64,000 nt of DNA from positions 1,775,650-1,839,649 of the forward strand of contig JANPYM010000008.1 in assembly GCA_025890175.1 (NCBI GenBank), written 5' to 3'. The position numbers and the translations under genes were made by a program. Under the pieces are notes generated by a model. That model saw only the letters and a program-made list of their open reading frames with translations, ran no database searches and had not been told where the DNA came from. How positions within the stretch are numbered: the stretch's first letter is position 1; every line of letters starts with the position of its first letter. This DNA is from Ciborinia camelliae. Its lineage: Eukaryota; Ascomycota; Leotiomycetes; Helotiales; Sclerotiniaceae. Positions 36,337-61,953 of the stretch are shown here, one piece after another.

Positions 36337-36350
36337 TCAAACCCTTAGAA
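36185..36350 (+). repeat. imperfect ~52-bp tandem repeat running into the 3' end of the Hint gene
   Basis: The words ACTGATAAGGAAACTTCAAA and ACTGACAAGGAGACTTCAAA, each followed by TCCTTT(C/G)CAAAAT, are about 52 bp apart. A third, more diverged copy (GTGACTGGCAAAGTTCAAAC) overlaps the last codons of the gene at 36337-42115. Confidence 0.6.
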
Positions 36351-39300: not shown

Positions 39301-42115
39301 TTGTTCACGTCAAGGCCAGTATCAGAAATAAAAGGAACAAGAGTCGCACGGTTGAATTGTACCGAGTGTATCTGGTCACTGCCTTTGAATGTCGACGAGG
39401 CGTCGTAGTAGGAGCCAAGCTGTTGACCAAATTTTTGGTTGATCTGATCTCGCAGCGTATCTAACTGAAGAAGTTTTATCGCGGGAACAACTATTTCGCC
39501 GTCGTAATAGCCATCTTCATAAGTTCCTGCATCTATAGGTTCTTGTGGATCGGTTCGCTGGTCATCGGGAGGGTAAACACTTTTATCCATTGTAACTTGC
39601 CATTGACAAAACGGCTCCCAGTTATCATCATCTCCACTTGAACTTGTATAACTGCCTGCCAATCGATCAAGACTGCATGCTTTGGCTTCGAATGTATGAA
39701 CTTCATCTCGCTGAGGAACTTCCTGGTCCTCTTCTTCGGAAGATAGGTAGATGACTCCTTGTCCTACTATGGCCTTAGGGCAAATCTTAAACACGCCATG
39801 TTCAAAAAGGTTGGTTTGTTCCAGCTCCCTTGTCCATCGAAACTGCCTCTTTCTTGAGTCATATGTGTTTCGAGGATGCACTTCTCCATTTACTAGAAGG
39901 TAGCCATCAATCAGGCTCAAAGTGGGAAGTTCATATCCAGCTGGTAGTCGATCAGGGTGATGAGCTTTGAGGCGGAATCCTCTCGTGAGACGATCAATAG
40001 GAATACCCTTGATAACTTTTAAAGCCTTAATCGTGTTCATATGTTCTGTGATATCGAGAGGATTTGTCGATTTCAAAAAAGTGTGTTCCTTCCCATCTGG
40101 AGAGTTGTATTGTCCAAACAATTCCCAGTTCAGCCGTTGATAAATGGCTTGAACTTCAAACTTTCCGAACATGTTCCTCAACTCCTGACAATGAGACAAA
40201 AGACCTAACCTCTTATCTCCTGGGACTTTGCGAAGCATCTCTACCGTCTCCCTCAATGTGTGATGTGGAGCGTTCGTGTCAACCAAATATCCGTCGGCGT
40301 GGTAGGTCTGGGAATTTCCAGGCAATAAAAGATTGAATGCGCCTTCCAATACACATTGCTTGGTTTTCTCAATTGATTTGATCTCAACAGCTATATATTC
40401 ATTTCCCTGCAGGCGAAATAAAACGTGTCCGGTAGCGAGCTTGCCAATGCGACGATATGGGTTGAAATGCTGTGCTTGTTCTGGGTCAACTGCGCGAAGC
40501 CCTGTGCTTGTATGAAATACTTGTGAGCTAAGGGTCCAAGGCACCTCTCCATCTAAAAAAGTTTACGTCAGTGTGACTTTTCTGATTGCTTTTAACTTTA
40601 AATCTGTACTCACTAAAGCCAACTAGATCTGCCTTTAGAGATTCCCGAACAGGCCTACAAAAGCCCAGGACAGACGAGTTGGATTGTTTGCAAACCAGGA
40701 CTCTATCTCCTGAACTTATGGCTTCAATTGGTCGTGATTCTCCATTGGAAAGGGCAATTGGAGTTCCAGGTAAGACAATGTTCTTTGGGGACTGGTTAAA
40801 TGTCGACAGACCCGGTTCACTGATCACAGGAAGATAATATTGACCCCATTGATAATCGTCTTCTTGTGAAATGTATGCTATATGTGAAAGTTAGAACGAA
40901 AGGTAGGAGTCTCATAATGTGACAGACAGAAGTAACAAATTTGACAGAAAGTTCAAAGGATATATAACATACCCCCGCCTTCCCATTCCTGAATCCAAGC
41001 ATATTCTTGTCCTATAAAAGCGTTGGTCATTCCACTGTGCCAGATTGGAAGGATTTGAGAATCCCAAAGGCTTGCCATGCTTGTACAATATGACTGCCAC
41101 GCATTTACTATATCCTGTTGATTTTTCAGTCGGCTCAGACTGTCTTTCAGCTCTTTAGTGTAATCTTCATCGTCAAATGCACTAACGGCCATGTCGTAGA
41201 ATGTCTTTGTGACATCCCAGGTAGGCGCAGGCTGCTGAATGTTGGTGATATCATTAGGTGGACAGAGTCCAATTGTAGCTATTTGACCACAGAACTTGAC
41301 GATGTTGTCCGTTTCATCTGGATCCCCTTTGGCGTATTCTCCCCATAAAGTGTAAGACCATTGGCTCAAAACATGACAACTGGCCCTTTGTTGATAGTCA
41401 GTGACCAAAGCAGAGGGCGTGGTGCGATAAACATGGTCCCTGTCCTGCATATAGTCTGCTATCATAAGCCACGCAATGCTGAAAAAATGATCGCCCCTGG
41501 CCATGTCGGTCCGTAACTCATTTACAACAAACCTTCTTGAGGTAACTAAGTCATTGCAAGAATCCCGAAAGCCAGGATAATTCCAGAGGTATTCCATGTT
41601 AGGTTTGCTTTGAGAGTCCAGTTCTCGATTGAGGTGTTCTCCAAAACAAAATCCCATGAGATTTGTAACGCATTCAAGGTAGCGAATTTTACTATTGTCC
41701 TATCTCGTAATTTTAGCATGAATATTTAGCAGTTGTTCGGTTTCTATAAAGGTTGAAATAGATTTAATAGTACTTCAAAGCTACTTACATCGCTCACATA
41801 CTGCTTCAAGTGATCACTGTCATCGTATTTGTCCTCAACATTAGCGATTCCGCTAGCGACTGAAGGAATCGAAAGCCTGTTTAGCAAATCAGGGATGTAG
41901 AAAATATCGATATACCCAGTATCGTCATTAGGGTCCTGATCCTCGGGGTATGGAGGAGCAGTTGGAATATAGTCGTAGATATACGGGTTATCTCTCCCAA
42001 ATGTCCCTCGAACCTTGTTATGCAGCCGATTGACATAGTCACTGAAGACCAAGGACTTGGCAGCTTGAACACCTTTAACGGCCTCCTGAAATACTTCGTC
42101 AATATCGCTTGACAT
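36337..42115 (-). CDS. giant protein with internal degenerate Hint domain and hydrophobic C-terminal region (1755 aa)
   Basis: Eight exons on the minus strand: 42115-41789, 41699-40973, 40877-40614, 40552-39145, 39086-38870, 38808-38335, 38252-37734, 37668-36337; every junction is GT-AG and in phase. No signal peptide. Residues about 386-533 resemble a Hint (hedgehog/intein-type) fold: LPGTPIALSNGESRPIEAIS then SGDRVLV, later HTSTGLRAVDP, NPYRRIGKLATGHVLF and TYHADGYLV. The canonical first Cys is missing (Leu387 or neighbour) and the final His-Asn is replaced by DTN, so splicing or cleavage seems lost. Hydrophobic helices lie at about 1460-1482, 1493-1512 and 1515-1555, followed by a beta-rich C-terminal domain. 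Hint domains in other systems often sit in polymorphic-toxin or self-processing proteins; for this protein a role is unknown. No TM-free enzyme motif was recognised. Confidence 0.75.
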
Positions 42116-43173
42116 TGCGATGTATTTAGTAGGATGTTGGTGGAAATGTATTGGGCAGAATGTATATAGGTGGTGGTGTGTGGTGATATATTCTGTAGGT
42201 TGTTGGTGGTAATGTGTTGAAGAGAGGGTATGTGGTCAGGTGAGTAAAATATAGATGATATTGTAGATTTTGGTTGGGTTGTGAAATATAGAGAAGGATG
42301 GGAGATAGTTATTATAGCGAAGAACTTGTCCCTCCACACTTCAACATCTTCCGTTTAAATGATATAGAATTTCACTCGGCCACTTGACCGATTCCTGAAG
42401 AAAGGCTGACTGAGAGGCTCGAACAAGCACGGGGTATTGCCGAATCTTGATCTATTAGGTGATACTCAAAATTGCATTTAAAATATCCGAGAACACAGTG
42501 TTTAATGCATCAAGGTGAACAGAAGATGCATATACGACTTTTGGCGCATTGTACAACATCTATTTGAGTTCATATCCAGTGTTGTGAGGATTGTTTATGC
42601 CTGGCTTCTAAGGCATCAACATATTTGTATTTAGTCGAGAGATTCCATCTCTCGAACACACTAGCCTTCCCATAATACCAATAAGCCTTCTATATAATCC
42701 TTGCCTCAGTGTGGAGTAGGTACGACGGAACAAAAAGAAAGGATTGCATATTCGCTTAACCGCTTAACCCATCGCTGTAACAAATCCAATCTAGTATCTA
42801 CTACTTACTCTATGGATACTCTAAGTCGCATGTGTATCCCCTAATAATTTTTAGTAGATATGGATCTGCTACGATATGTATCAATCAATATATCTCGGGT
42901 TCAGCCAGCCAACAACGCCATTGCCTACAGCTAGGCAGGAAGGAGGTGATTCCGGGGCCGAGCCACATTTCAATTTCAACGATCCGGGCCTTGTAGCACC
43001 TTGGAAGATCCCGAACCAATTGCAAGATAGCTTAGCGACATCATGACATCCCGTCCTGACCATGCGTTTCTGTAGTAGCTCATTAGTGACTCCCGAGGTC
43101 TTCAACGCCTCTTTCTTATGTTTTCAAATGCAGACCACATTGCAGATTTCGCAAATGAAATTTGGTAGACCAC

Positions 43174-48027: not shown

Positions 48028-48912
48028 ATGGATGGAGAGTTTGAAAGGTCTTTAATGCTTAGTCATGCCATGGCGTCCGGAAATTCTGTTACTGTAAGCC
48101 ATCAACAACAAGTACCAGTATGTTCCGATGGAAAATTACATCCGCCCAGATTCAATCAGTCATGAACATCACTAACAAATGCATCCATCCACCCATAGCC
48201 CGCACTCGTCAACCAAATCAAGAGCCTAGAACAAGCCATCGAAGGAATGAAAAGCAGGTCTTCGAATCAGGAAAGTAGGATTGCGATTTTAGAAAACACC
48301 CTAAAGGTTCAAACGTCGTATATTCAGGCTTTAGAGCTCAACCAAAGAGCTCAAACGACAAACATCCAGAATTTAGAAGATATCCGAAAGTCTCAAGAAA
48401 AGACGCTTGAGATTCAAGCAGAAGCCATCTAGAGGCTAGAAATCTACCGAATAGCTCAGGTAGCGGACACCAAGACTCTAAATGACCACCGGATGGCTCA
48501 TCTAGAGAACATCAAGACTTTAAATACCTTCCGAGAGACTCAAGCAACAGAAATTCGGGCTCTAGAAAACCACCGAGGTGCTCATGCGAAGACGCTTTAG
48601 AGTCACAAAATTTTCTTTGTAAATAACTTCCCGGAAAAGATTCACTATCTCAATCAGGAGTTGAAATTCCAAAAGGCAAAACTTGAAAATCAAGAGCGCG
48701 AGTTGAACAAGAAACTTGCCTTGTATGAGTCAGACTTATTCCAGAGAGTCAAGCAGATGATTCTCACAGATCTATTGAGTATGGAAGCTCAAACTGCGGA
48801 CTCTGTTGGTGTAAAACCTGAACCACACATCGTAGGTTTTTCCACCTCCATGACTCTAGTAATCCAAGTGCAAGTTGCGCATTCCACTTTGAATCTACTG
48901 ACCCATCAATGA
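48028..48912 (+). pseudogene. coiled-coil array member 1, two in-frame TAG codons
   Basis: Exon 1 at 48028-48117 (MDGEFERSLMLSHAMASGNS..) and exon 2 from 48199, joined at phase 0 by an intron ending CCACCCATAG. Exon 2 keeps one reading frame for 714 nt to TGA 48910-48912, interrupted only by TAG at 48430-48432 and TAG at 48598-48600. Between residues coded by about 48310 and 48600 there are 14-residue repeats: LELNQRAQTTNIQN, LEDIRKSQEKTLEI, LEIYRIAQVADTKT, LNDHRMAHLENIKT, LNTFRETQATEIRA. After the second TAG comes a more typical coiled coil (QKAKLENQERELNKKLALYE). An alternative donor at 48094 would also keep phase. Likely a decaying gene; readthrough or editing of the TAGs is possible but unproven. 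Confidence 0.6.
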
Positions 48913-49714
48913 CTTGATAGAAGAAAGAGCCTAGGGAGAAATAGAATGAGGCAACATGAAATCTTGAGTTTTTGGTGAGGCAGACAAATAACGTACTGTT
49001 TCGATGCAGCAGTTGAGGTACGCCCCACGAATTTCTGCCTTGAAAGGTTACATACATGTCCTGGTCTAAGATTCACATTTTGATTATTCTAGACACTAAA
49101 ATCTAGGTGTTTGTTCAGGATGAAGAGTTTAACGAGAATGCGGTTCTATTTACACATGCTTTGCGTTTGGCTTTTAGCTCCATCGACATGATTCGTCTTT
49201 TAGAGTTAGGGCGGGAAAATGGTCGATAATTTGATACACTGTGATAGCTAGTTGTATAAAGGAAGGCATTTTCCCCTCGTGGTTTTGCCCCTTTTATACA
49301 ATTAGGACTTTGTATTAAAATAAAATCCTTAGCTTAGCACGTCTCTATACCTCTAAGAGGTCTCTTTACGACGAAAACAGAATACTACTACTACTACTAC
49401 TGTGACAAAATAAAGTTTAAAGGTATGGGAAATCAGGAGCTTGGCTATACAGGATCTCGAAGATATCATTTTTCATTTCTTCGGAAATGCAAATGTCAGA
49501 TACCTTTTAATTTAACAAGTATGCCCCAGAAATATCATTCAAGCTCTAGCCTTGATCTTTTACATTGTGCTCCCTATTCCAATGCGGTCCATATTCACTT
49601 ATGTTTGTACGATACCTATGAATCATCTCGAAGAACCCACTACTTTAATTTCTACTCCGGATCCCCAAATCTCAGAATCTACAACCAATACCTCATTCTC
49701 CTGACTGTGCGAAA
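48913..49714. other. spacer between array members 1 and 2
   Basis: No gene. Contains an (ACT)n microsatellite at 49384-49401 and the leader of the next gene. Confidence 0.5.
49384..49401 (+). repeat. (ACT)n microsatellite
   Basis: Six consecutive trinucleotide units. Confidence 0.75.
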
Positions 49715-50113
49715 ATGTCCAAATTGTTGGAGCTTGAAAAGAGTTTGGTAAGTTCAACTCCAACTCTCACATCTCTTCCTCTTTTCTCTCTTATTATCAC
49801 TTAAAGCCAGCTAACCTTCGCATTGTAGCAAACGTCCTGCGCAGATTTCGACCAACAAGTGGACGATACACAGGAGAAGCTTAAGAAACACGAAGAAAAT
49901 ATAGAAAATATAGATGAGGTTCTTAAGAAGAACAAAGAAAAGAACGATGAAAATATTACAGAGTTGGCAAGCATTCAAGGGCGGATCAAGAATCTACAGA
50001 ACAAGGTCGAGGAGATGGCTGCAGAATATAGGGATGGTGGTGGATTGGTTGATTCTGGCCGTGGAGATGGAGATGAGAATGGAGATGAAGGTATAAAAGC
50101 GAAGGAGTCATGA
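49715..50113 (+). CDS. coiled-coil array member 2 (105 aa)
   Basis: Two exons: 49715-49747 and 49829-50113, phase-0 intron. Exon 1 codes MSKLLELEKSL. Exon 2 is a charged coiled coil: QQVDDTQEKLKKHEENIENI then KKNKEKNDENITELASIQGR and IKNLQNKVEEMAAEYRD. The tail is Gly/Asp-rich (GRGDGDENGDEGIKAKES). No signal peptide, membrane segment or enzymatic motif. The gene follows the array pattern of a tiny first exon, one phase-0 intron and a helical second exon. Function unknown. Confidence 0.7.
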
Positions 50114-50558
50114 GAGATATAAGAATATGTGCTGGTTCGGACACCCCACGCTTCTATTGCTTTTCTTGGATTACTCCCTCTGAAGATCACAGCTGATATC
50201 TTTGCTTCAGCTGCCGGACGTCACTCAAGTTGGCATGCGCGGAATGGATTTTGGGGGGTCACAAGCTTGAGCAAACATCATCCATGGGCTGGATAAAGGT
50301 CTTCGTGTTTGATATGGCTTTTCATTATCTTCAAACAACATACACCAAGTTGTTTGCACCCTATCAAAAGATTTCCAGAATGATTGACTACAACCTGTGA
50401 ACATCGTGCTTTTTTTAATCCAATTTTTCTTCCAATAAGTATTTATTAACCAGCTTCCCATCCTTGATTTCTTTCCATGATGAACCAACTCTTCTGTTTT
50501 ACTAACACGCCTTCGCACAACAAACTCCAACTCTGATACGCTGTACAACAGTGAAAAG

Positions 50559-50926
50559 ATGTCTCCAAAGACATTCTCCGATCTTGTAAGAGCAGATCTC
50601 CCCCCCTCTCCCTTTACCCAATTCCAAGCTAACCTCCGGTTCCAAACCAGCTCGGGGAACGCACCGCCCTGCTCGAACGCTCGGTGCTGAATTTCCAAGA
50701 TCTCACGCGCGGCCGCAAAGAAATGTTGGCATGCGAAAAACACATCATGGAGCTCAAGCAGAAACAAGGAGAGCTGGAGGCAAAGCGTGGGGGCTACCTG
50801 GCGGAAGATAGGAAGTTGCTGGTGCAACTTTTGAGATGGTTTATGGATCATCTCGCGGCACATCCGTCTGCAGCACCGGGTTTGCTCAAGGAGCTTAAGG
50901 AACTTGATGGGATGTCGGTGCTATGA
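50559..50926 (+). CDS. coiled-coil array member 3 (100 aa)
   Basis: Two exons: 50559-50585 (MSPKTFSDL) and 50651-50926, phase 0. Exon 2: LGERTALLERSVLNFQDLTR, then MELKQKQGELEAKRGGYLAE and a Leu-rich end (LLVQLLRWFMDHLAAH, APGLLKELKELDGMSVL). The C-terminal part is more hydrophobic than in other members and could form a helical bundle. The acceptor follows TCCAAACCAG. Function unknown. Confidence 0.68.
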
Positions 50927-52575
50927 ATGAAGATTTGGGCGCTTTCGTAGGTTTCGTCGTTGCTCCTCGGTTGTTCTTGCTACGTAGGTATTGAGAATAT
51001 GCCAGTGGCGGGTTTTTTGTTGGGCTCTCGTCTCTTGGTGCTAATACTAATAAACACCTCATTGCTAGATTTGCAAAGTCGGAATATGGAGACGGAGAAT
51101 AAACCTCGGGGTTAAATATGAGGTCATGTATCATAGGTGGAGATTATCAATCACGGCAATGGCAATTGTGCTTTGGGGAGAGGAGTGGGTTTCTGGAGGT
51201 CTGGAGTGCAGGATTATGCATTTAATATGAGATCCCGTTATCCTCCCGGCAAATCGGTGATGAATATCCAATGCTTATATCTTATTCATGTAAATTCTTT
51301 CGTGACCAGGTAGTGACTCCAACCTTGATGAAGTAAAATCCTCCAGCATCTTTAGCGAGACTTCCGCCTCCCCTTTGAGAGGAAAGGGGAGGTCCGTGCA
51401 GCAGATTTAAAGAAACTGGCCGATGCAAATCATATTATCGTTGTTGGAACGAGTCTTGAAATATCAGGGATTCGCTGTCTCGTGCAGGAAATGTGTACCT
51501 TAACTCGAGGTCGGGATCGTAAAGCTGGTTTATCTGCCTAGATACATCTCGATGGATAAATCTCGATGGAGAGTCTGGCGGTGGTGCTTTCAAATGTCAC
51601 ATCTACAGGTTCAAATTTTCAACACTTAAGTTTACCTGAATATTTCATATCGAGACTTAATCAACTCACTGCTGATTCGGATTTACTAATTCTTGAAATT
51701 TTCTTGATAGTGCAATTGATTTTTGTGAGTTATCTCAAACCTTTATCACGAACGTATGGATAGGTATTAAGCTGGTCTGGCCCCGTCCCAAAATACACTC
51801 TGGATCGAATTGATTCTCGCCTGAGGTCTTATTAGGTACTCATAATGGGTATTGTCTAAAGTTACAAAGGCTAACCATGCCATGTAGAAGGTCGTGTAGA
51901 CTTTTATAAGTGTTACTTAGAATATTTATGTATGGATGAATTGGAAAAGGGAGAGGTAAAAAGAAGCAAGAAAATGCATACAGGCTCAAGCAGGCTCCTT
52001 GGGATTATCTGTTACGTAAGATACCTCATTTCTGGTCAAATCTACTCCTTTACATGATTTTGGATAATGGCTTTCCGTAATTATAGGTGAATTTCCATCT
52101 CAATAGAGAACCCTTAAACTCACAATCACACCGGAATATTCCAGATATATCTTATGAGAAACTACATGCATAAAAGGGAATGGAGCATGTGTTTATTCCG
52201 CAGTCAATTACTGGGTAACTATGGAATGGCAATATCGGTATTTGATTAGGTCTCTTGTGTCTTCTGAATGAAGATAGGTATTGGCTGTGCCAAATATTTT
52301 ACTCAAAGAAAAATTCCCCAAGAGCAGAATCCAGCTTTGAATAGTGAATATATTTGTATTCATTCTCTTCCCCACAATACTGTCGTCCATATAATCACCC
52401 CATCCATCTTCCTATTCCCATTTCAATCCTCAACAACCCTCAAATCCCATCAACCTTACTCAGAAAACTCTCCACGTACATCAAAACACAACCGCAAAAC
52501 CCAGCTCTAAAGCTATCAAGACCCCTTCAACCAACTCCAACAATCACCTTTACCCCTTACCTCACCATCACCAAA
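50927..52575. other. 1.6-kb spacer in the array
   Basis: No supported gene; only short frames (for example 51566-51763 +). The leader of the next gene (52400-52575) is very C/T/A-rich. Confidence 0.45.
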
Positions 52576-52846
52576 ATGACGGACCGTATTCGCGCCGATA
52601 TCATCTTCGAACTGGCCGCCCTCGTAAATATCCCCCTCCCAATTTTGACGCTCAAAGCTAACCACGAACTCCTGCCTCTAGGATGTGGAACTCGAAATTA
52701 TATACCGCACGGGAAAATCTAAGTCTGGCATCCCGCAACTGTTGCTTGCACAGGCGAGGTGGCAGGCGCAGAATCGGTTGAATAGGATCGAGGCTTTTCG
52801 CGCAAGTGAGGAGCTGGAGAAATTGAGAAAGAGGAAAGAGGGTTGA
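52576..52846 (+). CDS. array member 4, very small helical protein (70 aa)
   Basis: Two exons: 52576-52623 (MTDRIRADIIFELAAL) and 52682-52846, phase 0, intron of 58 nt starting GTAAAT and ending CTCTAG. Exon 2: DVELEIIYRTGKSKSGIPQL, then an Arg/Gln/Glu-rich helix (QARWQAQNRLNRIEAFRASE, EKLRKRKEG). Too short to show up as an ORF of 60 codons without splicing. It matches the array pattern in strand, exon layout and intron phase, although the coiled coil is short. Function unknown. Confidence 0.55.
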
Positions 52847-54050
52847 GGGTTGAGGAGGAGGGGTTGTGTGGATGGGATGGGTTGGGATTGGGAGAGATGG
52901 GGAGATGAGGGAAGGGAAGGGATTGGAGAGAAAGGGAACTGGTGTGTATGTTCATCTCATGGTTGATTTTCTCTGAGAATACATACTCACCCTTTATTTT
53001 CTGCAGGTGCACAAAGTAAAGGACAGGAATACAGACTGGGTTTTTAGGTTGGGACAAAGATCATGATGTTAGTTAGATATAGCTATGCATAGCAATGAGA
53101 TCTCATTATCTTCCGTTTTTACTTGAGGAAAAGCCATTTTTTCTTGGAAACTAATTGTGACGGGGGTAGATGCGTGAACGAACTATGTGATAGGTGAGAT
53201 CAAATTTAATGAAATGTAATGAGATGTGGTGTAGGAAGATATGTAGTGGAGAATGAAGATGAGGTGATGATATAGATTGCTTTTAAAGGGCTTATACGGC
53301 TTATAGGGCTTACAGTGGTATTATAGGCCTTAACACCCTATAGCAGACGTGCAACAAAAGATTTTGAGTTTCCCTCCTACTTTCAATAGAGTGAATATTT
53401 ATCTTGATTACCGAAATTTACTAACATACCAATGACGTACAACCAATGGCATACATACAACATATAAAGCACCTTTACGACTAACAATCTTTCTAGAAAC
53501 TAATCTCAACTTCTATAGAGTGAACTTCAATCTTAAGCTTTTAGACCCCTAGCACTGAATTCTCGCTTAAAGTACGCGCTAGTGAGCATAGAGTAGTTCA
53601 TACGCATTTTTACGAGTACGAATCTTTCTAGAAACTAATCGCAACTTCCATAGAGTGAGTTAAATGCTTGCTTAAAGTATACTCGTAGGCATAGAGTAGT
53701 TTATACGCACTTTTATCAGTCAGATCCCCACGGGCAATAGCGCTGGTGGACTTACTGCTGAGCATTTTAGCGGAATTTCAGGAATCTTGTGTAAACATGG
53801 CTACCGCAATTACTTTCATCATCTTCTGGATTACAATAGCTTCTGAACAATAAAACATTTCCACAAATATTGATTCAACATTGATCGAGTGAATTTTCTT
53901 TAGTCTATTGTACCTATCATTCTTCAAGATATTCACCTCACTCGGTTGCTGTTTATCCTCATATGAAGTTATTTAGTATCTCAACACCTCTTCTCCAACT
54001 CCGTGAAAACATCCACCCACAACCACAATATCAAACTCCGCACCGCAAAG
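52847..54050. other. 1.2-kb spacer with direct repeats
   Basis: Homopurine-rich start (GGGAAGGGAAGGG near 52910), then a duplicated segment at 53486-53727. No gene seen. Confidence 0.5.
53486..53727 (+). repeat. diverged ~135-bp direct duplication
   Basis: AATCTTTCTAGAAACTAATC at 53486 recurs exactly at 53621. After each copy follow (T/G)CAACTTC(T/C)ATAGAGTGA, GCTTAAAGTA, GCATAGAGTAGTT and ATACGCA in the same order; the second copy is shorter. Confidence 0.75.
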
Positions 54051-54514
54051 ATGGAAAACCAGACCACCTCTCAAGCCTTTCGCGCTGTTGGTAAACTTGA
54101 CCTTACACTCGTAAGTAGATGCGGCACTATTCCACCGATCCGGCCACCCCTCCTTCTCTTCCGGATCTGCTCAAAATCTAATTATTTCCATCCTTCCAGA
54201 CTGAGATACGCGAAGCACTACCCAATTTCAAGGAAACGGTACAACGATCCCACCTAATCGTCAATCAACAAGCGCAATTGATCGAGAGTGTTCTTGAGAC
54301 CAAAAAGATGGCCCAAACATTGGCTGAAAGATGTGGACGCACTCTTCTGGAGATAAAAGAGCTGTTGAAACCACATGAAGCGCGCTTGGTGAATCTCAAA
54401 GAGGTCGAGATGGAAATGGTGGCGCAGAGAGATCTGCTGGTTAATCTTGAAATGGCGATGATGGAGCGATTGAAGGATTTGTCGGAAAAAGAAAAGTCTG
54501 GACCGCGTATTTGA
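54051..54514 (+). CDS. coiled-coil array member 5 (124 aa)
   Basis: Two exons: 54051-54110 (MENQTTSQAFRAVGKLDLTL) and 54200-54514, phase 0. Exon 2: TEIREALPNFKETVQRSHLI then ETKKMAQTLAERCGRTLLEI and PHEARLVNLKEVEMEMVAQR, a clear coiled coil with heptad leucines. Ends EKEKSGPRI. The stop TGA at 54512-54514 is followed two bases later by GTATGT, the start of a likely 3'-UTR intron. Function unknown. Confidence 0.72.
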
Positions 54515-54516
54515 GT

Positions 54517-54607
54517 GTATGTTGTGCGGTGCAATCCTTACTTCCTTTATTCATCACCGTGCCCCTCTGCACTTATAAAATTCAATACTAACTTCCCCTT
54601 TCCATAG
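54517..54607 (+). other. predicted 3'-UTR intron of array member 5
   Basis: GTATGT donor, ATACTAAC branch point and CCATAG acceptor, beginning two bases after the stop codon. Confidence 0.55.
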
Positions 54608-55033
54608 ATCAACCGGGCCAAGGACGGCAAGTTGGGGGCTAGGGATTCAGATGGCATGCAAAGATCATGGGCATTACCGAGGAGGGAGTAGGCCGCTTTG
54701 ATCATAACAATGACTTTCCATCATCTTTCTGGATACTGAGCACTTAGTTGCTTCTAATACAAACAAAGACTCTGATGAACTGCAGGCTCCGATCGTGAAA
54801 GGTGAACTTCGCCCTATAGCCCCGCTTTGTTGACTTGGGATATTCACTTGATTTACTCTCTCCCCATTTACTTCTTCAATACTCCACGAACCTTTTCCCA
54901 ACTTCCTTCAATCCCCAACTACCCAAACTCTTCAAGACCTCGCAATTTATTCAACTTCTCTGACAGCCTCAACCTCAACCTCAACCTCAACCTCAACCTC
55001 AAATCAGAACTCGATATCCTTCACACTGCAAGA
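54608..55033. promoter_or_regulatory. leader/promoter of array member 6
   Basis: Contains TTGGGATATTCACTTGATTT (54834 onward), related to blocks before members 7-9, and a perfect (CCTCAA)n run at 54967-55002 just before the ATG. Confidence 0.5.
54967..55002 (+). repeat. (CCTCAA)n repeat in 5' leader
   Basis: Six consecutive units 32 bp before the start codon. Confidence 0.85.
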
Positions 55034-55525
55034 ATGCCCCCACAGCCCCAAAAAAGAGCTGCTTCCGAAATGACCGGACAATCAGAGGAGAATGATGACA
55101 GTCCAGTTAAAAGAGTTAGCCCTCTTCTCCCCATGTTCATGCCCATACGCAGATCCACTAACATATCTTCTTTTAAGGTAAAAGGAATGCTCGAGGAGAA
55201 TGAAGACAAAATCGCCCTCGACAAAAAGAAAAGCGAAGACTTTCAAAAGTTGAGAGACTCCAGATGCGACCATATTAAACGTTGTAACATGAAGATTAAA
55301 GACTGGGAAACCAAGATCTCAACGTTCAAAAAAATGATTCAAAGTATGGAACAAGAGATTGAACAGTGTGTGGAAGATGCATTGAAATCTATTTTTATGG
55401 TGATGCTGATGGAGGAGGAGGACGAGGAGGACGAGGAGGAGGAGGAGGGCGAGGAGGAGGAGGAGGGCGAGGAGGAGGAGGAGGGCGAGGAGGACGAGAG
55501 AGAAGAGGTCACAGAGGAGAGTTAA
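55034..55525 (+). CDS. coiled-coil array member 6 with poly-Glu tail (142-163 aa)
   Basis: Starts MPPQPQKRAASEM, like members 8 and 9. The frame is open throughout, but by analogy with its paralogues an in-frame 63-nt intron is likely at 55115-55177 (CACTAAC branch point, TTTTAAG acceptor): spliced 142 aa, retained 163 aa. Exon 2: KGMLEENEDKIALDKKKSED then MKIKDWETKISTFKKMIQSM, a coiled coil. The tail is an almost pure Glu/Asp/Gly stretch coded by an 18-bp repeat (GGCGAGGAGGAGGAGGAG-like). Such a tail could mimic histone- or RNA-binding acidic tails, which is only inference. Confidence 0.72.
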   Translation: MPPQPQKRAASEMTGQSEENDDSPVKRVSPLLPMFMPIRRSTNISSFKVKGMLEENEDKIALDKKKSEDFQKLRDSRCDHIKRCNMKIKDWETKISTFKKMIQSMEQEIEQCVEDALKSIFMVMLMEEEDEEDEEEEEGEEEEEGEEEEEGEEDEREEVTEES

Positions 55526-55541
55526 ACTCAAATGTTGTAGG

Positions 55542-55616
55542 GTAAGTAACTGCTCTCCAGATCCAACGTATCATTACCTCTCCCTTCCACCAGAACTAAT
55601 GATATTCTACCTCCAG
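55542..55616 (+). other. predicted 3'-UTR intron of array member 6
   Basis: GTAAGT donor 16 nt after the stop codon, AACTAATG branch point, CTCCAG acceptor; 75 nt. Confidence 0.6.
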
Positions 55617-55655
55617 ATATTGAGATCAAAGCCCAGACAAACGAAATAGGGATTA

Positions 55656-55670
55656 GGGATTCGGCATTCG
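55656..55670 (+). promoter_or_regulatory. shared 3' element GGGATTCGGCATTCG (copy 1)
   Basis: Exact 15-bp match to 60429-60443; a weaker relative (GGGATTCAGATGGCA) follows member 5 near 54643. Confidence 0.5.
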
Positions 55671-55936
55671 GAGAAAGGCGATAGTAATTCAGGAGATATG
55701 ACAACAGCAATGATTTGTCATTATCTGCCATCTACTTCCAAGCACCAGGTTTCTTTCAATACAAAATGAAAAGCTATCATGAATATTGACTCATATCTTG
55801 AAAAGTGAAATCTGTGTCAGCACCATTTTTAAGCTAGCGTTTTCTATTATTCACGTAATCTACCTATTTCCCATTTAAGTTCTACACCACCCGTGATCTC
55901 TTGAGCTTTTCCAAATACCTCAACGTTGAATCCAAG

Positions 55937-55984
55937 TCTCAATATCCTCCAACTCTCAATATCCTCCAAGTCTTAATATCCTCC
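55937..55984 (+). repeat. ~17-bp tandem repeat in 5' leader of member 7
   Basis: Three imperfect copies of TCTCAATATCCTCCAA directly before the ATG at 55985. Confidence 0.8.
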
Positions 55985-56551
55985 ATGTCGCCAAAACGCC
56001 CCCTAATAGAAGAATCTCCAAGACGGCGATTAACTGGTCTAAATCTCCTCCAATGGGTAAGTATACTCAGCCTCTCCTTTCTCCTATGCTGATATTTATA
56101 CCGAAACTGACGATGCTGTCTTTCTTAGATTATCGAGATGCTGGAGGATTGCCAAATTGAAATCATCGTTAAATCAGCATTGATGGAAAACTACCAAAAC
56201 CTCATCGGAAAGAACCAGAGTGCCATTCAAGAGGAAGAAGCAGAAATCCAGAAACGCGAAGAAGAAATTCGAAAACGCAGAGAAAGAATTGAGAGACTCG
56301 AGTCGGAAATCGAACATAGTGGAAGAAAGTTTCAAACCATGGGCGATATAATCGAGAAGTTGAAGAAGCAGGAGAACACGCTTACAGCAATTAAAGATCG
56401 TGGAGAAGAGTTTCAGAGGGAGAGTTCAGAGGCCGGGGAAGAGAAACTCACAGAGGTTATGCAAGAAGCGTATATGAAGGCGGAAGGATTACCGAAGAAG
56501 AAAAAGAGGAAAGTGGAGGGGAAGGAGATAAAAGAAGAAGAGGAGATTTAA
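55985..56551 (+). CDS. coiled-coil array member 7 with SV40-like NLS (164 aa)
   Basis: Two exons: 55985-56056 (MSPKRPLIEESPRRRLTG..) and 56129-56551, phase 0. Exon 2: IIEMLEDCQIEIIVKSALME, then a long coiled coil (AIQEEEAEIQKREEEIRKRR, RIERLESEIEHSGRKFQTMG). The block KDRGEEFQRESSEAGEEKLT recurs in members 8 and 9 and marks the C-terminal family region. Residues 146-153 are PKKKKRKV, a classical monopartite nuclear import signal. Ends in an acidic tail. Probably nuclear; molecular role unknown. Confidence 0.77.
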
Positions 56552-56567
56552 AGCTCCGCGGTACAGT

Positions 56568-56648
56568 GTAAGTCACCATATCCTGATTTTGATACATTAC
56601 TACTTGAATCGCTTTCAAAAATCAATACTGATACCATTCCTTCTTCAG
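56568..56648 (+). other. predicted 3'-UTR intron of array member 7
   Basis: GTAAGT donor 16 nt after the stop (same spacing as member 6), TACTGATAC branch-like sequence, TTCTTCAG acceptor; 81 nt. Confidence 0.6.
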
Positions 56649-56912
56649 ATCTTCAAGAAGTAAAACCAAAGGCAAACTATGCAAATGAAGTGGATGACTG
56701 ATCTCATAACTATTGACTCACCCATTGAGAAGTGAACCATATATGTGGACCTCCAGCTACCTTCTTTCCTTTTTTGATACTCACTAGATCTACCCATTCT
56801 CATCTAACTTCGCTCCATCAGCACCCACGATCTCTTGAACTTTCCCAAACACCTCAAATTCAAATCCAAGACTGATAAGTTAATTAACCTGGACATCCTC
56901 TACACTAAGAAA

Positions 56913-57674
56913 ATGCCCCCGAAGAGAACTGCCTCCGAGATGGCCGGCGAGTCTGGAATGGACGAAAATCCCCTCCAAAAGGTAGATTACCTCTACTTCT
57001 CTTTTAGAACGAAGGGTATACTCAATCTACACCGAAACTGACCATACCGTTTTTCTTAGATTAGAAGGGCCCTCGATGAATGTCAACAATGTATTGCTCA
57101 GAAGGAAAAATCATTGACATGCCTTGAAACCGAAGTCAAAAATATAGAGGGGGCAATTCGAGATTGTAGTGAAGCAGATATTCGAAAGGCCCAAGGCGGA
57201 ATTCTTATAGCCAAAACAGAATATCGAAACATGGAAGGCGAAATTTCTAAAGTCGAAGAAAAAATTGAGACTGCGGAAGAAGAAATGAAAAATGCGAAAG
57301 CTGACATTGAAAATGTGAAAGCTGACATTTGTAAGGTCGAACACGATATACGCATGAACAAAGTAGATATTCAAGGGGCGAAAGAAGAAATCCGAAGTGC
57401 GGAAGGCAAAATCAGTATGACCGAAGAAGAAATTCGGCATACAGAAGATGAAATTCGTATGGCCGAAGACAAACTCCGTATGGCCGAAGACCAAATCCGT
57501 ATGGCCGAAGACGAAATCCCTATGGCCGAAGACGAACTTCGTATAATCGAAGAAGATATTCGAAAGGCGAAAAATGAATTCAAATGCGCGAACGAGAACT
57601 TGGAGGCCACCAAATTGCAATTGGAAGGTCTACAGACGGCATTAGAAGAGAAATCAATGAAATGGAGAAATTGA
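56913..57674 (+). CDS. coiled-coil array member 8, perfect-heptad repeat, frameshifted C-terminus (227 aa)
   Basis: Two exons: 56913-56981 (MPPKRTASEMAGESGMDENP..) and 57060-57674, phase 0. Exon 2 begins IRRALDECQQCIAQKEKSL and continues as an unbroken coiled coil. Around 57440-57540 lies a 21-bp repeat coding for the heptad (R)MAEDEI: MAEDKLR, MAEDQIR, MAEDEIP, MAEDELR. The frame ends KSMKWRN at 57674. In the -1 frame, EINEMEKLKEKKLQLMAARD then RGEKFEKEFL continues the family C-terminus (compare KDRGEEFQ in member 7) to a TAA at 57836-57838. A one-base deletion near 57640-57655 therefore seems to have cut off about 60 residues. Confidence 0.7.
57430..57545 (+). repeat. 21-bp heptad-coding tandem repeat
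   Basis: About five copies of ATGGCCGAAGACGAAATCCG in frame; each unit codes for exactly one coiled-coil heptad. Confidence 0.85.
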
Positions 57675-57838
57675 AAGAAAAGAAGTTGCAACTTATGGCA
57701 GCACGAGACCGAGGAGAGAAGTTTGAGAAGGAGTTTTTGAAGACTGGGGATGAGAAATTTGAGAGGATAATGAGAGAAGAATCGGATGAGATTGATATTT
57801 CAGCTGGAGTGGAGATGAGAAGAAAGGACAGTAATTAA
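57675..57838 (+). pseudogene. out-of-frame C-terminal remnant of array member 8
   Basis: Open in the -1 frame relative to the main CDS and clearly homologous to the C-terminus of member 7 (LKEKKLQLMAARDRGEKFEK). Ends TAA 57836-57838, three bases before a GTAAGT. Confidence 0.65.
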
Positions 57839-57841
57839 TTA

Positions 57842-57917
57842 GTAAGTCACAACTCACAACCATCCAGTTTTGGTATATTATTTGTCTGTCTCACCTTCAT
57901 GATCTAATTCTGCCCAG
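57842..57917 (+). other. predicted 3'-UTR intron of array member 8
   Basis: GTAAGT donor 3 nt after the ancestral stop, GATCTAAT branch point, TGCCCAG acceptor; 76 nt. Confidence 0.55.
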
Positions 57918-58129
57918 GTGATGGCATCCATCCTCCCATTCAGATTATCGTTATCGAAAAAAGAAATACTCTCATAGCTGTCGACTTCAACATTCATACC
58001 TAGGTGAAACTTAAAGAGTGAAACATATCTACGGGCCCATATTCTTTCTTTTGTGATATTCACTCGATCTATCCATCTACCCAATTCCCATTGTGCCTTC
58101 AAACCCTTCCAATATTTTCAACTTCACCG

Positions 58130-58178
58130 TTACATCAACTTCCCCATTACATCAACTTCCCCATTACATCAACTTCAA
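58130..58178 (+). repeat. 17-bp tandem repeat in 5' leader of member 9
   Basis: Nearly three copies of TTACATCAACTTCCCCA, 30 bp before the ATG. Confidence 0.9.
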
Positions 58179-58207
58179 ATCTGAACTTGATCCTCCAAAT
58201 TGCAACT

Positions 58208-58734
58208 ATGCCACCGAAAAGAAGTGCCTCTGAGATGAGTGGAAACTCTGAAGATGCCAAGGTCAGTCGTTTCGAAAAGGCAAGTTGCATAAAGTTCCTT
58301 ATCCTCCCCGAGTATAGATTCTTGAGCCTGAACTAACCATCACAACCCATCTTCAGATCAAAGAGGCCCTCGAGTTGAATAAAAAGTCCATCCAAGAATA
58401 TGAAAAGACCGAGCTTTTAGCAACTAAAGCCTTTTGGGAACACTCTCGGAAAATCGACCAGCAGGAGAATATACTCAAACAACTTAAACGACAGAGTTTA
58501 GAACTCGAAAAGTGTGTTATTCAATGCAACATATCAATCGTCCATCTGAGAAAAGTAGAAACGGATCTGGAGTCCATTGAAGAGCGAGGAGAGAAAGTCA
58601 AGCAGAGGCTGTTTGAGACGGCGAAGAATGGGTTGACGAATACTGTGAATAATATAGATGAGTTGAAGGATTTGCTTGAAAAATCACAAGATAGTGCAAA
58701 TATATTTGCGCAGATGAAGCAAGAGCAAGATTAA
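58208..58734 (+). CDS. coiled-coil array member 9 (143 aa)
   Basis: Two exons: 58208-58261 (MPPKRSASEMSGNSEDAK) and 58357-58734, phase 0, donor GTCAGT, branch AACTAAC. Exon 2: IKEALELNKKSIQEYEKTEL then EHSRKIDQQENILKQLKRQS and LELEKCVIQCNISIVHLRKV. The block ETDLESIEERGEKVKQRLFE corresponds to KDRGEEFQ in member 7. Exon 1 is nearly identical in design to member 8 (MPPKR.ASEM). Stop TAA is followed by a 3'-UTR intron. Function unknown. Confidence 0.77.
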
Positions 58735-58778
58735 AGAGGGATTGGACCACAGGAATACCTAAGGCTATGTGTTTTGGT

Positions 58779-58862
58779 GTAAGTCATTTCCCTTCAGTTT
58801 CACTCCATCGAATCATTATATTCAATTCCCGCGAATCGAGGTTAACGTTTTCCCATTCTCAG
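58779..58862 (+). other. predicted 3'-UTR intron of array member 9
   Basis: GTAAGT donor 44 nt after the stop codon, GTTAACG branch-like site, ATTCTCAG acceptor; 84 nt. Confidence 0.5.
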
Positions 58863-59691
58863 ATCACCTACATCAAACCCAAGGTGTGCAAAATGGCTCG
58901 TAATGTAGTGGTAGTCATGAATACTGGGTCAACAGGAATGCAGTCGGAGGAATGAATTCTCATGACATTTCACCTTGCAAATGATAATATCAAATGGCTT
59001 TCATCTGCGTAAAACTTTCTATGACTTCTGATTTTGATACAGTGATGGCAATATCCTTTCCAAGCTATCATCCAGTAACAATATAGCGGCAAGGCCTTTC
59101 TCCCACATATATATACAAATTACGCGAAGTACCATCACAAAAGCGTTTCTAATGATGTGGGCTGCCAATGCTTCTCGCTCTCCGTTCAGCGTCCATAGGA
59201 TTAGACGCCTGGCTTCATCCATCGAGAGTCCCTCATTGAGGGGATGGTGTCGCTACAACCACCTTTTTGTTTCCATTTTTTGGAGCCTTATTCACTTTTT
59301 TGGTGGTGACTGTGATTTTTTGGTGAATGTGTTGTTGAGTGAGGTTTTGGGAGTATATTTTCACCTCCAGTTAGGTACGTCGCTGTCCTCGCTTAGCCAA
59401 TTAATTTCCAAATGTGGGTCAGAAATTTGCATACTACGGCGGAGAGATCATTCAGTGAGTTGTATCTGTTTACTCCAATCAGAGAAACAGGAGTTTGATT
59501 GGACAACTCCCTCCCCTCGGCCCCCCAAGCTTTTGAGGACATTCACAGCTCCAATAACACCATCTCGACCCCGCACTTCCTCTTCTTTCCCACTTCTCAA
59601 GAACCTCTTTAAAGCTCCAAAACTGCACATATTTGCAAAACATATTTACCCGTCAACCCAGAAACTGAAATCATCTTCAACAACCTTAACA
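58863..59691. other. spacer between array members 9 and 10
   Basis: No supported gene. Short open frames only; the start of the region is the 3' UTR of member 9, the end is the leader of member 10. Confidence 0.45.
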
Positions 59692-60204
59692 ATGGAGTTC
59701 AATATCGATATGACAGGTAAAACTGCCAGTGAAAGTGTAAGCTCAAGACCAACCCCATTTTGCACCTCATTCTCTGGCTCTTCACTTCCTCCCATAACAA
59801 TAGTTCACCTAACTGACAATACTTCACTCTAGTTCGAGTCTATAGTTTTCAAATTTGCGACCCAACAATCTACACAAACCGCAGACAAACTTGCACAAGC
59901 CCAACTCGCCATCGGAGAAAGGCTTACGCAAATCCAACACCAAATCCGCGAACAACAAAAGCAAATTGAAGACTATCAAATTAAGATTCATGAACACGTA
60001 CAACTTCTTGCTACTTTGAGATTGGATGAGAAGATTATCTCAGAAGAGCAGCTGGCTTTGGAGCTTGAAAAGGTCGCTCATGCACTCGTGGCACGTGGCA
60101 ACAAGAGCATGGAAAATGAGATTCTGGCGAAAGAGACGCTTCATAAAGAGATGCCAGCGAAACAGACGCTGGCACAGGGAATATTTTATGAAGCAGAGTT
60201 TTGA
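59692..60204 (+). CDS. coiled-coil array member 10 (138 aa)
   Basis: Two exons: 59692-59736 (MEFNIDMTGKTASES) and 59833-60204, phase 0. Exon 2: FESIVFKFATQQSTQTADKL then QAQLAIGERLTQIQHQIREQ, QKQIEDYQIKIHEHVQLLAT, a Gln-rich coiled coil. The end contains a short repeat (ILAKETLHKEMPAKQTLAQG). Stop TGA is followed after 27 nt by a 3'-UTR intron. The 3' UTR shares GGGATTCGGCATTCG with member 6. Function unknown. Confidence 0.73.
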
Positions 60205-60231
60205 TGAGAGTTAAGTGTATGGTATTAGGGT

Positions 60232-60332
60232 GTAAGTTATCTTTGTGATTTTCTTGCCACTTGCGTCTTATTCCATTCCAAGACCTCGACCTCTCTTTCC
60301 AACTGATAGCTAACCTCTGTATTTTTCTCTAG
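60232..60332 (+). other. predicted 3'-UTR intron of array member 10
   Basis: GTAAGT donor 27 nt after the stop, GCTAACC branch point, TTCTCTAG acceptor; 101 nt. Confidence 0.6.
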
Positions 60333-60428
60333 GATAGGGCAAAGTATAGTGCGAATCTGCCGGTCAGATGCAAGGCAATACTATTGATAGATATGATGAA
60401 CACATCACTATCAGTGCCGTTGGATATT

Positions 60429-60443
60429 GGGATTCGGCATTCG
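60429..60443 (+). promoter_or_regulatory. shared 3' element GGGATTCGGCATTCG (copy 2)
   Basis: Exact 15-bp match to 55656-55670 downstream of member 6; both lie in the exon after the 3'-UTR intron. Confidence 0.5.
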
Positions 60444-60726
60444 ACGGAATCCATGGGTAAATAAGATATTGTTTGAACAATGGATTCCAAGCTACTTTGG
60501 ATTCATTCCGTAGAACTTTATACACGATTCTTGACTTCAAAAATTTGGCTCATCTGCGTCCTTCGTTCTTTCCATTTTTCAGATATCTACTTGTCACACC
60601 TCCATCTTAGATTTCTCAACCTCTACTTCCATGTTAAATCACAAATCAAACCACGTATCACAGCTCGACTTTTGGACATAATAAAATAACGATTACTCGA
60701 GATATATCTGTACATCCCCAAGCAAT

Positions 60727-61810
60727 ATGTCTATTAACGACAGCAATCAGAGCCCATTAGCTTCGCATTCTTCAAGTAAGTGTTATATCTAGACAATCTT
60801 TTTCTGAGTGCCGAAGCTACGGAGTCATTTTGAAGTTTCTTATGGCCTCTCTGTCGACTGGTTCATTATTTAGCGCTTGTTACTTGATATATGCTACTTT
60901 ATGAAGTCGACTTGTCAATGCTAATAATTATCTTCTATGAGGCGATCACGAAATGAAAACTGCGGAACTCAACACTATAGAAGTGACTTCAAAGAAAGCA
61001 GGGTCAAAACCAAGTAAAATCAGCAGAGAAGACCTCAAAGCAATGGACACCTTTAAAAGGAGTAGGATCGCCATGGTAAATTAACCTCAAGCTCAAATCC
61101 CGCTTTTCTGCCATTGACCTATTAACCTAACTTGCTCCAATCAACAGAGCAAGACACACGCAATCATGACCAAACTTTCCGCCAAAAACGAGAAAAAACT
61201 TTTAGAAGTACGACGAGAGATCGAACAGCACAATGTGGAGATTGCAGACCTAAGGGCACAGGAACAAATACTTGAGAAGTTTAACCAGAAGTGCCTTGAT
61301 GTCAAAACCAAATGGGTAGAGGAGAGTTGTGAAATTCTGCGCAAGTATAAGGAGCGCGAGGAATTGGTGATCGATACCAGTGATCAAAATACGGCGGATT
61401 CTTCCCCATTGACCACTCCGGGTCCCTCCCCAGATGGCTCTCCCTCTCCAGAATTCCGAGGTCTTGTTTCTCTTCCAAAAGTCCATCAACCACATTATGT
61501 AAGGGAATATGCTACTTCGGGCAATGATCGAGCAGAACACTTGCAGTATTTACAAAGCGAATTTCTGGCTAAAAGCCATCTCCGCGAGCAAGCAATGGAG
61601 GAAGAGGCGAGGAAAGAAGAGGAGGAGAGGGAAACTATGGCTTCTATCACAAGAGACAAGAAGCGCTGTAAGAAACGAAAGACGCGCATCGCCAAATTTA
61701 TAGCGCGAAAAGCTAGGGAGAGTGCCTGGGATACTGCTTCGTTATCATCGAATGCTGAAGAAGGCGAGGTTCCTCGCACCAGGCATCGAAGAGTAAGGTA
61801 TTGCAGGTAG
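60727..61810 (+). CDS. coiled-coil array member 11, largest intact member (281 aa)
   Basis: Three exons: 60727-60775 (MSINDSNQSPLASHSS), 60942-61075, 61148-61810. The first junction is phase 1 and the second phase 0. Exon 2: DHEMKTAELNTIEVTSKKAG, Lys/Ser-rich. Exon 3 starts with a coiled coil (KNEKKLLEVRREIEQHNVEI, LRAQEQILEKFNQKCLDVKT), then a Ser/Pro linker (TTPGPSPDGSPSPEF) and a second helical region (LREQAMEEEARKEEEERETM) followed by a very basic end (KKRCKKRKTRIAKFIARKAR). It differs from the other members by an extra exon and tail, so it may be an older or fused member. The basic end suggests nuclear or RNA contact. Function unknown. Confidence 0.75.
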
Positions 61811-61843
61811 AGAGAGGGTGTACGGAATGGGGTGGTATATTAA

Positions 61844-61953
61844 GTAAGTCTTTTTGTCGTTGCTTGCGCTTCACCAGCCAATATGAGATTCCGATCCGGT
61901 ATATTTCTTCCGACTTATGGAGTAGGTAGTTACTAACATGATCTCTTCTTCAG
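61844..61953 (+). other. predicted 3'-UTR intron of array member 11
   Basis: GTAAGT donor 33 nt after the stop, perfect TACTAAC branch point, TTCTTCAG acceptor; 110 nt. Confidence 0.65.

What the first reader, a model, noticed from the sequence alone, without database searches (positions are those of the whole stretch)
48028..61810. Head-to-tail array of eleven small genes, mostly coiled-coil, with a shared architecture
Seen: eleven genes or relics, all on the + strand in about 14 kb, each with a first exon of 9-30 codons and a short intron (phase 0 in all but the last), then an exon coding for a charged, mostly coiled-coil segment. Members 6, 8 and 9 share MPP(K/Q)..K?R(A/S/T)ASEM-type starts, and members 7-9 share the (K)DRGE(E/K)F C-terminal block. 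Inference: a lineage-specific family that grows by tandem duplication and diverges fast, as expected for effectors, allorecognition factors or nuclear regulators. I do not recognise it as a known family.
Basis: partly seen in the sequence, partly recalled or inferred. Interest (0 to 1): 0.85.

Follow-up and report, generated by a model that had tools for sequence, protein, structure and literature searches.

The report
Tandem array of fungal coiled-coil genes
A fungus that blights camellia flowers carries a run of small neighbouring genes, about five of which are copies of one another, whose surrounding DNA stayed more alike than the rod-shaped proteins they encode; what they do is unknown.

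Summary
The array is real and lies in Ciborinia camelliae (Sclerotiniaceae): M5 equals predicted protein NHQ30_006876, and M9 equals NHQ30_006880 except for the intron acceptor. M5-M9 are tandem duplicates at DNA level: M6-M9 share upstream DNA in all six pairs and the start exon in four; M5 is tied in by DNA downstream of M6. M3, M10 and M11 join by that architecture only. M2 and M4 are weakly supported. M1 is a relic; M6, M7 and M8 show decay or frame change. The start MPP..KRxASEM looks constrained, while the coil exon is more diverged than its flanks. No relative outside C. camelliae was found for the 3 members searched and no further array for the 7 tested in its own genome, but most of these searches could not even see neighbouring members, so distant relatives are not excluded. 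Most likely a birth-and-death family of intracellular, perhaps nuclear, coiled-coil proteins. Function is not shown.

The parts
48028..48912 (+). M1, relic: exon 1 48028-48093, intron 48094-48198 (phase 0), coil exon from 48199, first in-frame stop ends 48432; open pieces continue to about 48900 with a 42-nt (two-heptad) DNA repeat
   Evidence: model, stop; open pieces; 42-nt periodicity, codon-shuffle z 7.1
49715..50113 (+). M2: exon 1 49715-49747, intron 81 nt phase 0, exon 2 49829-50113; 105 aa; no post-stop intron found; weakest member together with M4
50559..51068 (+). M3: exon 1 50559-50585, intron 65 nt phase 0, exon 2 50651-50926; 100 aa; post-stop intron candidate 50947-51068
52576..53006 (+). 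M4: exon 1 52576-52623, intron 58 nt phase 0, exon 2 52682-52846; 70 aa; possible post-stop intron 52946-53006, 99 nt after the stop (outside the strict rule)
54051..54607 (+). M5 (= NHQ30_006876): exon 1 54051-54110, intron 89 nt phase 0, exon 2 54200-54514; 124 aa; post-stop intron candidate 54517-54607
   Evidence: identical public protein; one helix, residues 2-119
55034..55616 (+). M6: open frame 55034-55525 (163 aa) running through the place of intron 1; MPP..KRAASEM start; acidic tail from a GGA-rich repeat; post-stop intron candidate 55542-55616
55985..56648 (+). M7: exon 1 55985-56056, intron 72 nt phase 0, exon 2 56129-56551; 164 aa; DRGE block; basic tail PKKKKRKV; post-stop intron candidate 56568-56648
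56913..57917 (+). M8: exon 1 56913-56981 (MPPKRTASEM), intron 78 nt phase 0, exon 2 57060-57674 with a 21-nt heptad repeat; the DRGE block (within 57578-57838) lies in another frame; post-stop intron candidate 57842-57917 counted from the stop of that frame
58208..58862 (+). M9 (= NHQ30_006880): exon 1 58208-58261 (MPPKRSASEM), intron 95 nt phase 0 (public model uses the acceptor before 58318), exon 2 58357-58734; possible post-stop intron 58779-58862 (good donor, failed the branch rule)
   Evidence: (one helix, residues 26-155 of the 156-aa public protein)
59692..60332 (+). M10: exon 1 59692-59736, intron 96 nt phase 0, exon 2 59833-60204; 138 aa; post-stop intron candidate 60232-60332
60727..61953 (+). 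M11: exons 60727-60775, 60942-61075, 61148-61810; 281 aa; second intron phase 0; strongly basic C-terminal part; post-stop intron candidate 61844-61953
54839..54857 (+). shared upstream element (GATAYTCACTYGATYTAYC type, at most 1 mismatch) before M6; also 56776-56794 before M8 and 58055-58073 before M9; M5 and M7 have only looser forms, more than 3 mismatches

Best explanation
An apparently lineage-restricted, birth-and-death tandem gene family. The duplicated unit, 0.93-1.3 kb from start to start in M5-M9, carries a promoter, a short start exon, a phase-0 intron, one coil exon and probably an intron just behind the stop codon. Copies arise head to tail by unequal exchange. The start exon (MPP..KRxASEM) appears to be under purifying selection in M6, M8 and M9, while the coil exon changes quickly, partly by gain and loss of 21- or 42-nt pieces (one or two heptads) that keep a coiled coil in register. 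The products are small intracellular helical rods that most likely work by pairing with themselves, with each other, or with a conserved partner held by the constant N-terminus. The basic tails of M7 and M11 point to the nucleus. Shown by sequence: duplication of M5-M9, shared architecture, more synonymous change in the start block than in the DRGE block, a more diverged coil. Inferred: splicing of the post-stop introns, unequal exchange, coiled-coil pairing, nuclear location, and any role.
For: DNA homology outside the coil exon: M7-M8 upstream z 13.9, intron 1 z 8.3; all six M6-M9 pairs upstream z 4.0-13.9; M5-M6 downstream z 8.3, M5-M7 upstream z 3.5. Post-stop intron by a strict rule in 7 of 11 members (M3, M5, M6, M7, M8 in its DRGE frame, M10, M11) against 13 of 1,038 background ORF stops; binomial 1.5e-11, or 1.7e-9 with 6 if M8 is left out. 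Start pattern only in this array, 3 of 3 hits genome-wide, 0 in the reversed control. Start-block codons, synonymous to amino-acid-changing: 6:4, 7:3 and 4:4 over 15 codons; DRGE block 3:16, 2:23 and 4:21 over 28 codons. Coil exon z 1.1-3.8 in the six M6-M9 pairs, below the upstream z of the same pair each time although the exon is longer; at a divergence that gives the M7-M8 flank's z, a simulated M7 coil exon would still score about 16. 21-nt periodicity in M8 (z 11.9), 42-nt in M1 (z 7.1). Public gene models for M5 and M9. Single-sequence models of M5 and M9 are each one long helix, mean pLDDT 91.8 and 89.3.
Against: No transcript data. Codon preference does not separate the frames: for M4, M5, M6, M8, M9 and M11 another frame of the exon scores higher. 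M1, M6, M7 and M8 show decay or frame change, so several members may be dead. M6-M7 coil and upstream z are nearly equal (3.7 and 4.0). M10 lacks clear DNA homology to the core (best z 4.9 for intron 1 with M7 and 3.4 for exon 2 with M5 in a 90-test table); M11 and M1-M4 were not in that test. Of 55 protein pairs only 7 exceed z 2.5, none with M3 or M10. Single-sequence helix models do not prove coiled coils.
Confidence: 0.55

Rival explanations
1. Only M5-M9 are one family; M1-M4, M10 and M11 are unrelated orphan genes that happen to lie beside it on the same strand and share generic features (short first exon, helical protein).
For: Clear DNA homology is confined to M5-M9 among the six members tested. 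M10 and M11 show no start motif and no clear protein similarity to the core. No post-stop intron was found for M1 and M2, and only a distant candidate for M4.
Against: M3, M10 and M11 carry the post-stop intron, which only 13 of 1,038 background stops have, and a phase-0 intron before the coil exon, all on one strand.
Confidence: 0.27
2. Mostly a decaying or never-functional array: duplicated, transcribed DNA whose purine-rich exons happen to give long charged open frames.
For: M1 has stops, M6 lost its splice sites, M7 lost the family start, M8's tail is out of frame. Codon preference is uninformative. No Pfam family passes its cut-off among those listed.
Against: Start-block codons of M6, M8 and M9 show as many or more synonymous than amino-acid-changing differences (15 codons only), which is not expected of untranslated DNA. 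M5, M9, M10 and M11 are fully open with usable splice sites.
Confidence: 0.14
3. A conflict locus (allorecognition, spore killing or another selfish system) in which variable rods recognise or poison each other.
For: Copy-number growth, a constant start and a fast-changing body are what such loci often look like (recalled).
Against: No known killer, NLR, HET or prion-forming domain passes its Pfam cut-off (M7's weak NACHT_N and Goodbye hits are at E 0.19 and 0.77), no membrane-like segment, no population data.
Confidence: 0.08
4. Host-directed effectors.
For: Plant-infecting fungus (abstract of PMC10512376); fast-evolving tandem family.
Against: No secretion-like N-terminus: maximum 11-residue hydropathy of the first 35 residues is -0.55 to 1.61 over the 11 models, against 2.25 for one secretion-like control. 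0 to 6 cysteines per model.
Confidence: 0.04

Closest known systems
Lineage-specific tandem arrays of orphan genes in filamentous fungi (general class, recalled)
   Same: Head-to-tail copies, no outside relatives found, mixture of intact and decayed copies
   Different: Here a post-stop intron and a constrained start exon are kept while the coil exon changes
Xlr/Slx/Sly-type amplified nuclear coiled-coil genes of mouse sex chromosomes (recalled; works-like comparison only)
   Same: Amplified small charged helical proteins, fast evolution
   Different: No Cor1-type domain among the Pfam matches listed; fungus; no expression or drive data
wtf spore-killer genes of fission yeast (recalled; works-like comparison only)
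   Same: Fast-evolving multi-copy fungal genes with short exons
   Different: wtf proteins have several membrane segments; none here (maximum 19-residue hydropathy 1.28)
Tropomyosin / WTAP Pfam families
   Same: Weak coiled-coil similarity of M1 (both) and M2 (tropomyosin)
   Different: Scores far below the curated cut-offs (for example 20.7 against 38.6 bits); generic heptad resemblance

Membership tests
One tandem-duplicated family (M5-M9) | DNA homology in non-coding parts of the unit | tested here: met
   all six M6-M9 pairs upstream z 4.0 or more; M5-M6 downstream z 8.3; M5-M7 upstream z 3.5
One tandem-duplicated family (M5-M9) | Copies confined to one locus | tested here: inconclusive
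   no other array found in G000; M7's only non-self match is in M8; a 48-nt piece of M9 lies alone on C11. But these searches mostly miss even the neighbouring members, except the start-pattern search
Same family, extended to M3, M10, M11 | Phase-0 intron before the coil exon and a post-stop intron | tested here: met
   splice sites predicted, no transcripts
Same family, extended to M3, M10, M11 | DNA or protein homology to the core | tested here: inconclusive
   for M10 (weak); for proteins (M9-M11 score reached by 4 of 100 heptad-preserving shuffles; no pair with M3 or M10 listed)
Same family, extended to M2, M4 | Post-stop intron within 60 nt | tested here: not met
Secreted fungal effectors | N-terminal signal peptide | tested here: not met
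   hydropathy only; no dedicated predictor was available
Known curated protein family | Pfam score above the curated cut-off | tested here: not met
   10 proteins scanned (M11 coil exon only, M8 not included), none of the listed families above cut-off; for M2 25 of 82 sub-threshold families were shown. NCBIfam on 7 members: 19 families, each matched by one member, best E 9.5e-5, many of them long coiled-coil proteins such as SMC and Rad50; cut-offs not shown there
wtf-type killers | Several membrane-spanning segments | tested here: not met
Any functional class | Expression, localisation, partner | not testable with these tools
   no transcript or protein data held

The most novel reading that the evidence does not exclude
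A variable-rod locus: one promoter, start exon and intron cassette is reused in tandem, while a coiled-coil exon is remodelled by heptad-sized DNA repeats, giving a single-locus, species-private set of nuclear rods that pair selectively, as in a self-recognition or genetic-conflict system.
Probability: 0.1. Interest if true: 0.75.

Novelty: new member of a known kind. Interest (0 to 1): 0.42.

Why it matters
It is a compact natural case in which birth, decay and remodelling of copies can be read unit by unit, with better-kept non-coding parts around a fast-changing coding exon. If transcripts confirm the post-stop introns, it also gives several sister genes for asking what such introns do in filamentous fungi. 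The protein family has no named relative among the searches run here, so its role is open.

Tried and rejected
Dispersed arrays: hits of the M1 query on C1 and C11, of the promoter motif on C1, C10 and C12 and of M9 on C11 were followed; other hits were not. A tblastn of the member models against 13 fetched 10-kb loci found only the M9 piece on C11. C1:345-355 kb holds a tandemly duplicated segment. The loose architecture scan gave 5 hits in the array (M5, M7, M9, M10 and, with another start, M11), 2 elsewhere in the window and 7 in the 13 loci (both strands): one each in L029, L032 and L034 and four in L036, of which three appear to be pieces of one multi-exon gene and one lies just upstream of it. 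The scan misses M3, M6 and M8 and is unspecific in intron-rich genes, and 9 of the 13 loci were chosen for, or next to, earlier hits, so it is only supporting evidence. A second upstream motif (TTGARAAGTGAAM) gave 4 window matches, 2 of them in the array, with 0.8 expected: not used. Codon-preference coding test: uninformative. PDB sequence search with M9: two chance-level hits. Fold comparison of the two single-helix models: not run, since a lone helix matches too much. dN/dS over the whole coil exon: not attempted, alignment too uncertain. Papers: listings and passages of PMC10512376 and PMC7746235 were seen; one search found nothing. None of these listings showed a description of this array, which is not proof that none exists. 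The post-stop-intron rule and the promoter pattern were written after seeing the array, so their chance values are descriptive.
Full report
Identity. The genome holding the window has 46.2 Mb in 27 contigs; the window is C26:1775650-1839649. A search with M9 returned one protein, NHQ30_006880 of Ciborinia camelliae. It is identical to the window's translation except for 13 residues that come from an acceptor 39 nt upstream. M5 returned NHQ30_006876, identical over 124 aa. The window is therefore Ciborinia camelliae, or something indistinguishable from it here. The tags leave three numbers between M5 and M9, which fits M6, M7 and M8 (inference).

Gene models. Searches give eleven units. Ten have a short first exon and an intron before the coil exon; M6 is open straight through that place. 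M1-M5 and M7-M10 have a phase-0 first intron. M11 has a phase-1 intron followed by a phase-0 intron, so its coil exon is preceded by a phase-0 intron as well. M1 carries stops. M7's predicted start is not the family start. M8's DRGE block is in another frame.

Just after the stop codon, 2-33 nt away, stands a donor, followed by a branch-like and an acceptor sequence, in M3, M5, M6, M7, M8 (counted from the stop of its DRGE frame), M10 and M11: 7 of 11 by a strict rule, against 13 of 1,038 ORF stops in the rest of the window and in 13 fetched 10-kb loci. M9 has the donor 44 nt after the stop but failed the branch rule; M4 has a candidate 99 nt after; M1 (counted from its first stop) and M2 have none. 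The rule was written after seeing the array. In Neurospora nonsense-mediated decay responds to several mRNA features (passage of PMC7746235, whose reference list names a paper on 3'UTR introns that is not held). I draw no functional conclusion.

Tandem duplication. Segment-wise local alignment (15 pairs of M5-M10, six segments, 90 tests) shows upstream DNA shared by M6-M9 (z 4.0-13.9), intron 1 by M7-M8 (z 8.3), start exons by M6-M8, M6-M9, M7-M8 and M8-M9 (z 5.4-8.7; not M6-M7 or M7-M9), post-stop introns by M6-M8, M6-M9 and M7-M8 (z 4.0-4.7), and downstream DNA by M5-M6 (z 8.3). Direct repeats at one-unit spacing (927-934 nt) appear. An upstream element with at most one mismatch occurs before M6, M8 and M9 and nowhere else in the genome; with up to two mismatches the whole genome has 17 matches against 4 for the reversed control. 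M5 and M7 do not match it within 3 mismatches. M10 does not show clear homology; M11 and M1-M4 were not in the segment test.

Constraint and divergence. In the start block (15 codons) synonymous and amino-acid-changing codons number 6:4 (M6-M8), 7:3 (M6-M9) and 4:4 (M8-M9), leaving out three extra codons of M6. In the DRGE block (28 codons, aligned by eye without gaps) they number 3:16, 2:23 and 4:21. The three comparisons in each set are not independent. The coil exons score z 1.1-3.8 in the M6-M9 pairs, far below what the flank divergence predicts for M7-M8 (about 16). Promoter constraint could explain conserved flanks, but the M7-M8 intron is also better kept. Heptad-sized DNA periodicity is strong in M8 (21 nt, z 11.9) and M1 (42 nt, z 7.1); elsewhere the z at 21 nt is 0.1-3.4. 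Coil exons therefore may change partly by gain and loss of heptads.

Restriction and its limits. Protein searches of about 5.8 billion sequences were run for 3 of 11 members. M9 and M5 found only their own Ciborinia proteins. M11 found only a protein with no named source, encoded by the window. The method needs shared five-residue words, and that Botrytis or Sclerotinia proteomes are in the collection was not checked. Own-genome protein searches were run for M3, M5, M7, M8 (first frame, E up to 0.01), M9, M10 and M11 (others E up to 1): apart from M8 found by M7 (E 0.02), a 19-residue match of M9 on C11 (E 0.08) and a chance-level match of M5 on C24 (E 0.6), only self. Since M9, M8 and M5 did not find their neighbours this way, and a DNA query from the M7-M8 stretch found only itself, these searches exclude close copies only.

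Proteins. Pfam: 10 proteins scanned (M8 not included, M11 coil exon only), none of the listed families above its cut-off; many sub-threshold coiled-coil hits for M2. Of 55 protein pairs 7 exceed z 2.5; M6-M9 and M8-M9 were reached by 0 of 100 heptad-preserving shuffles. AlphaFold without alignment gives one helix of 130 residues for M9 and 118 for M5. N-termini are not secretion-like. M7 ends with PKKKKRKV followed by a charged tail, resembling the SV40-type nuclear signal (recalled), and M11 has a strongly basic C-terminal part.

Neighbourhood. Left of the array lies a minus-strand region of open frames (36-42 kb) without a Pfam match above cut-off; further left are a Rad51-family gene and a CPL/Puf-type gene. 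In the 20 kb right of the window neither the loose scan nor tblastn found a further unit, though the scan also misses some members inside the array.

Verdict. A real tandem family with core M5-M9, probable members M3, M10 and M11, doubtful M2 and M4, and a relic M1. It is new as a family as far as searched, ordinary as a kind. Function is inferred at best.

Noticed in passing
L033 (C11:428000-437999), 5218-5265; window 58605-58652: A 48-nt exact copy of M9 coil-exon DNA lies alone on another contig, outside any array seen, as if inserted during repair.
   Followed up: partly
window 49247-49400; L002 (C1:331937-332085), L003 (C11:166394-166475): DNA behind M1 has 77-78% matches on two other contigs; possibly a small dispersed element.
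   Followed up: partly
window 36337-42235, minus strand: A row of minus-strand open frames, perhaps one multi-exon gene, without a Pfam match above cut-off.
   Followed up: partly
window 53469-53720: Short direct repeats (55 nt, 87%; 39 nt, 82%) between M4 and M5.
   Followed up: no
L029 (C1:345000-354999): A segment of about 1.75 kb duplicated in tandem, with a stretch that reads N.
   Followed up: no
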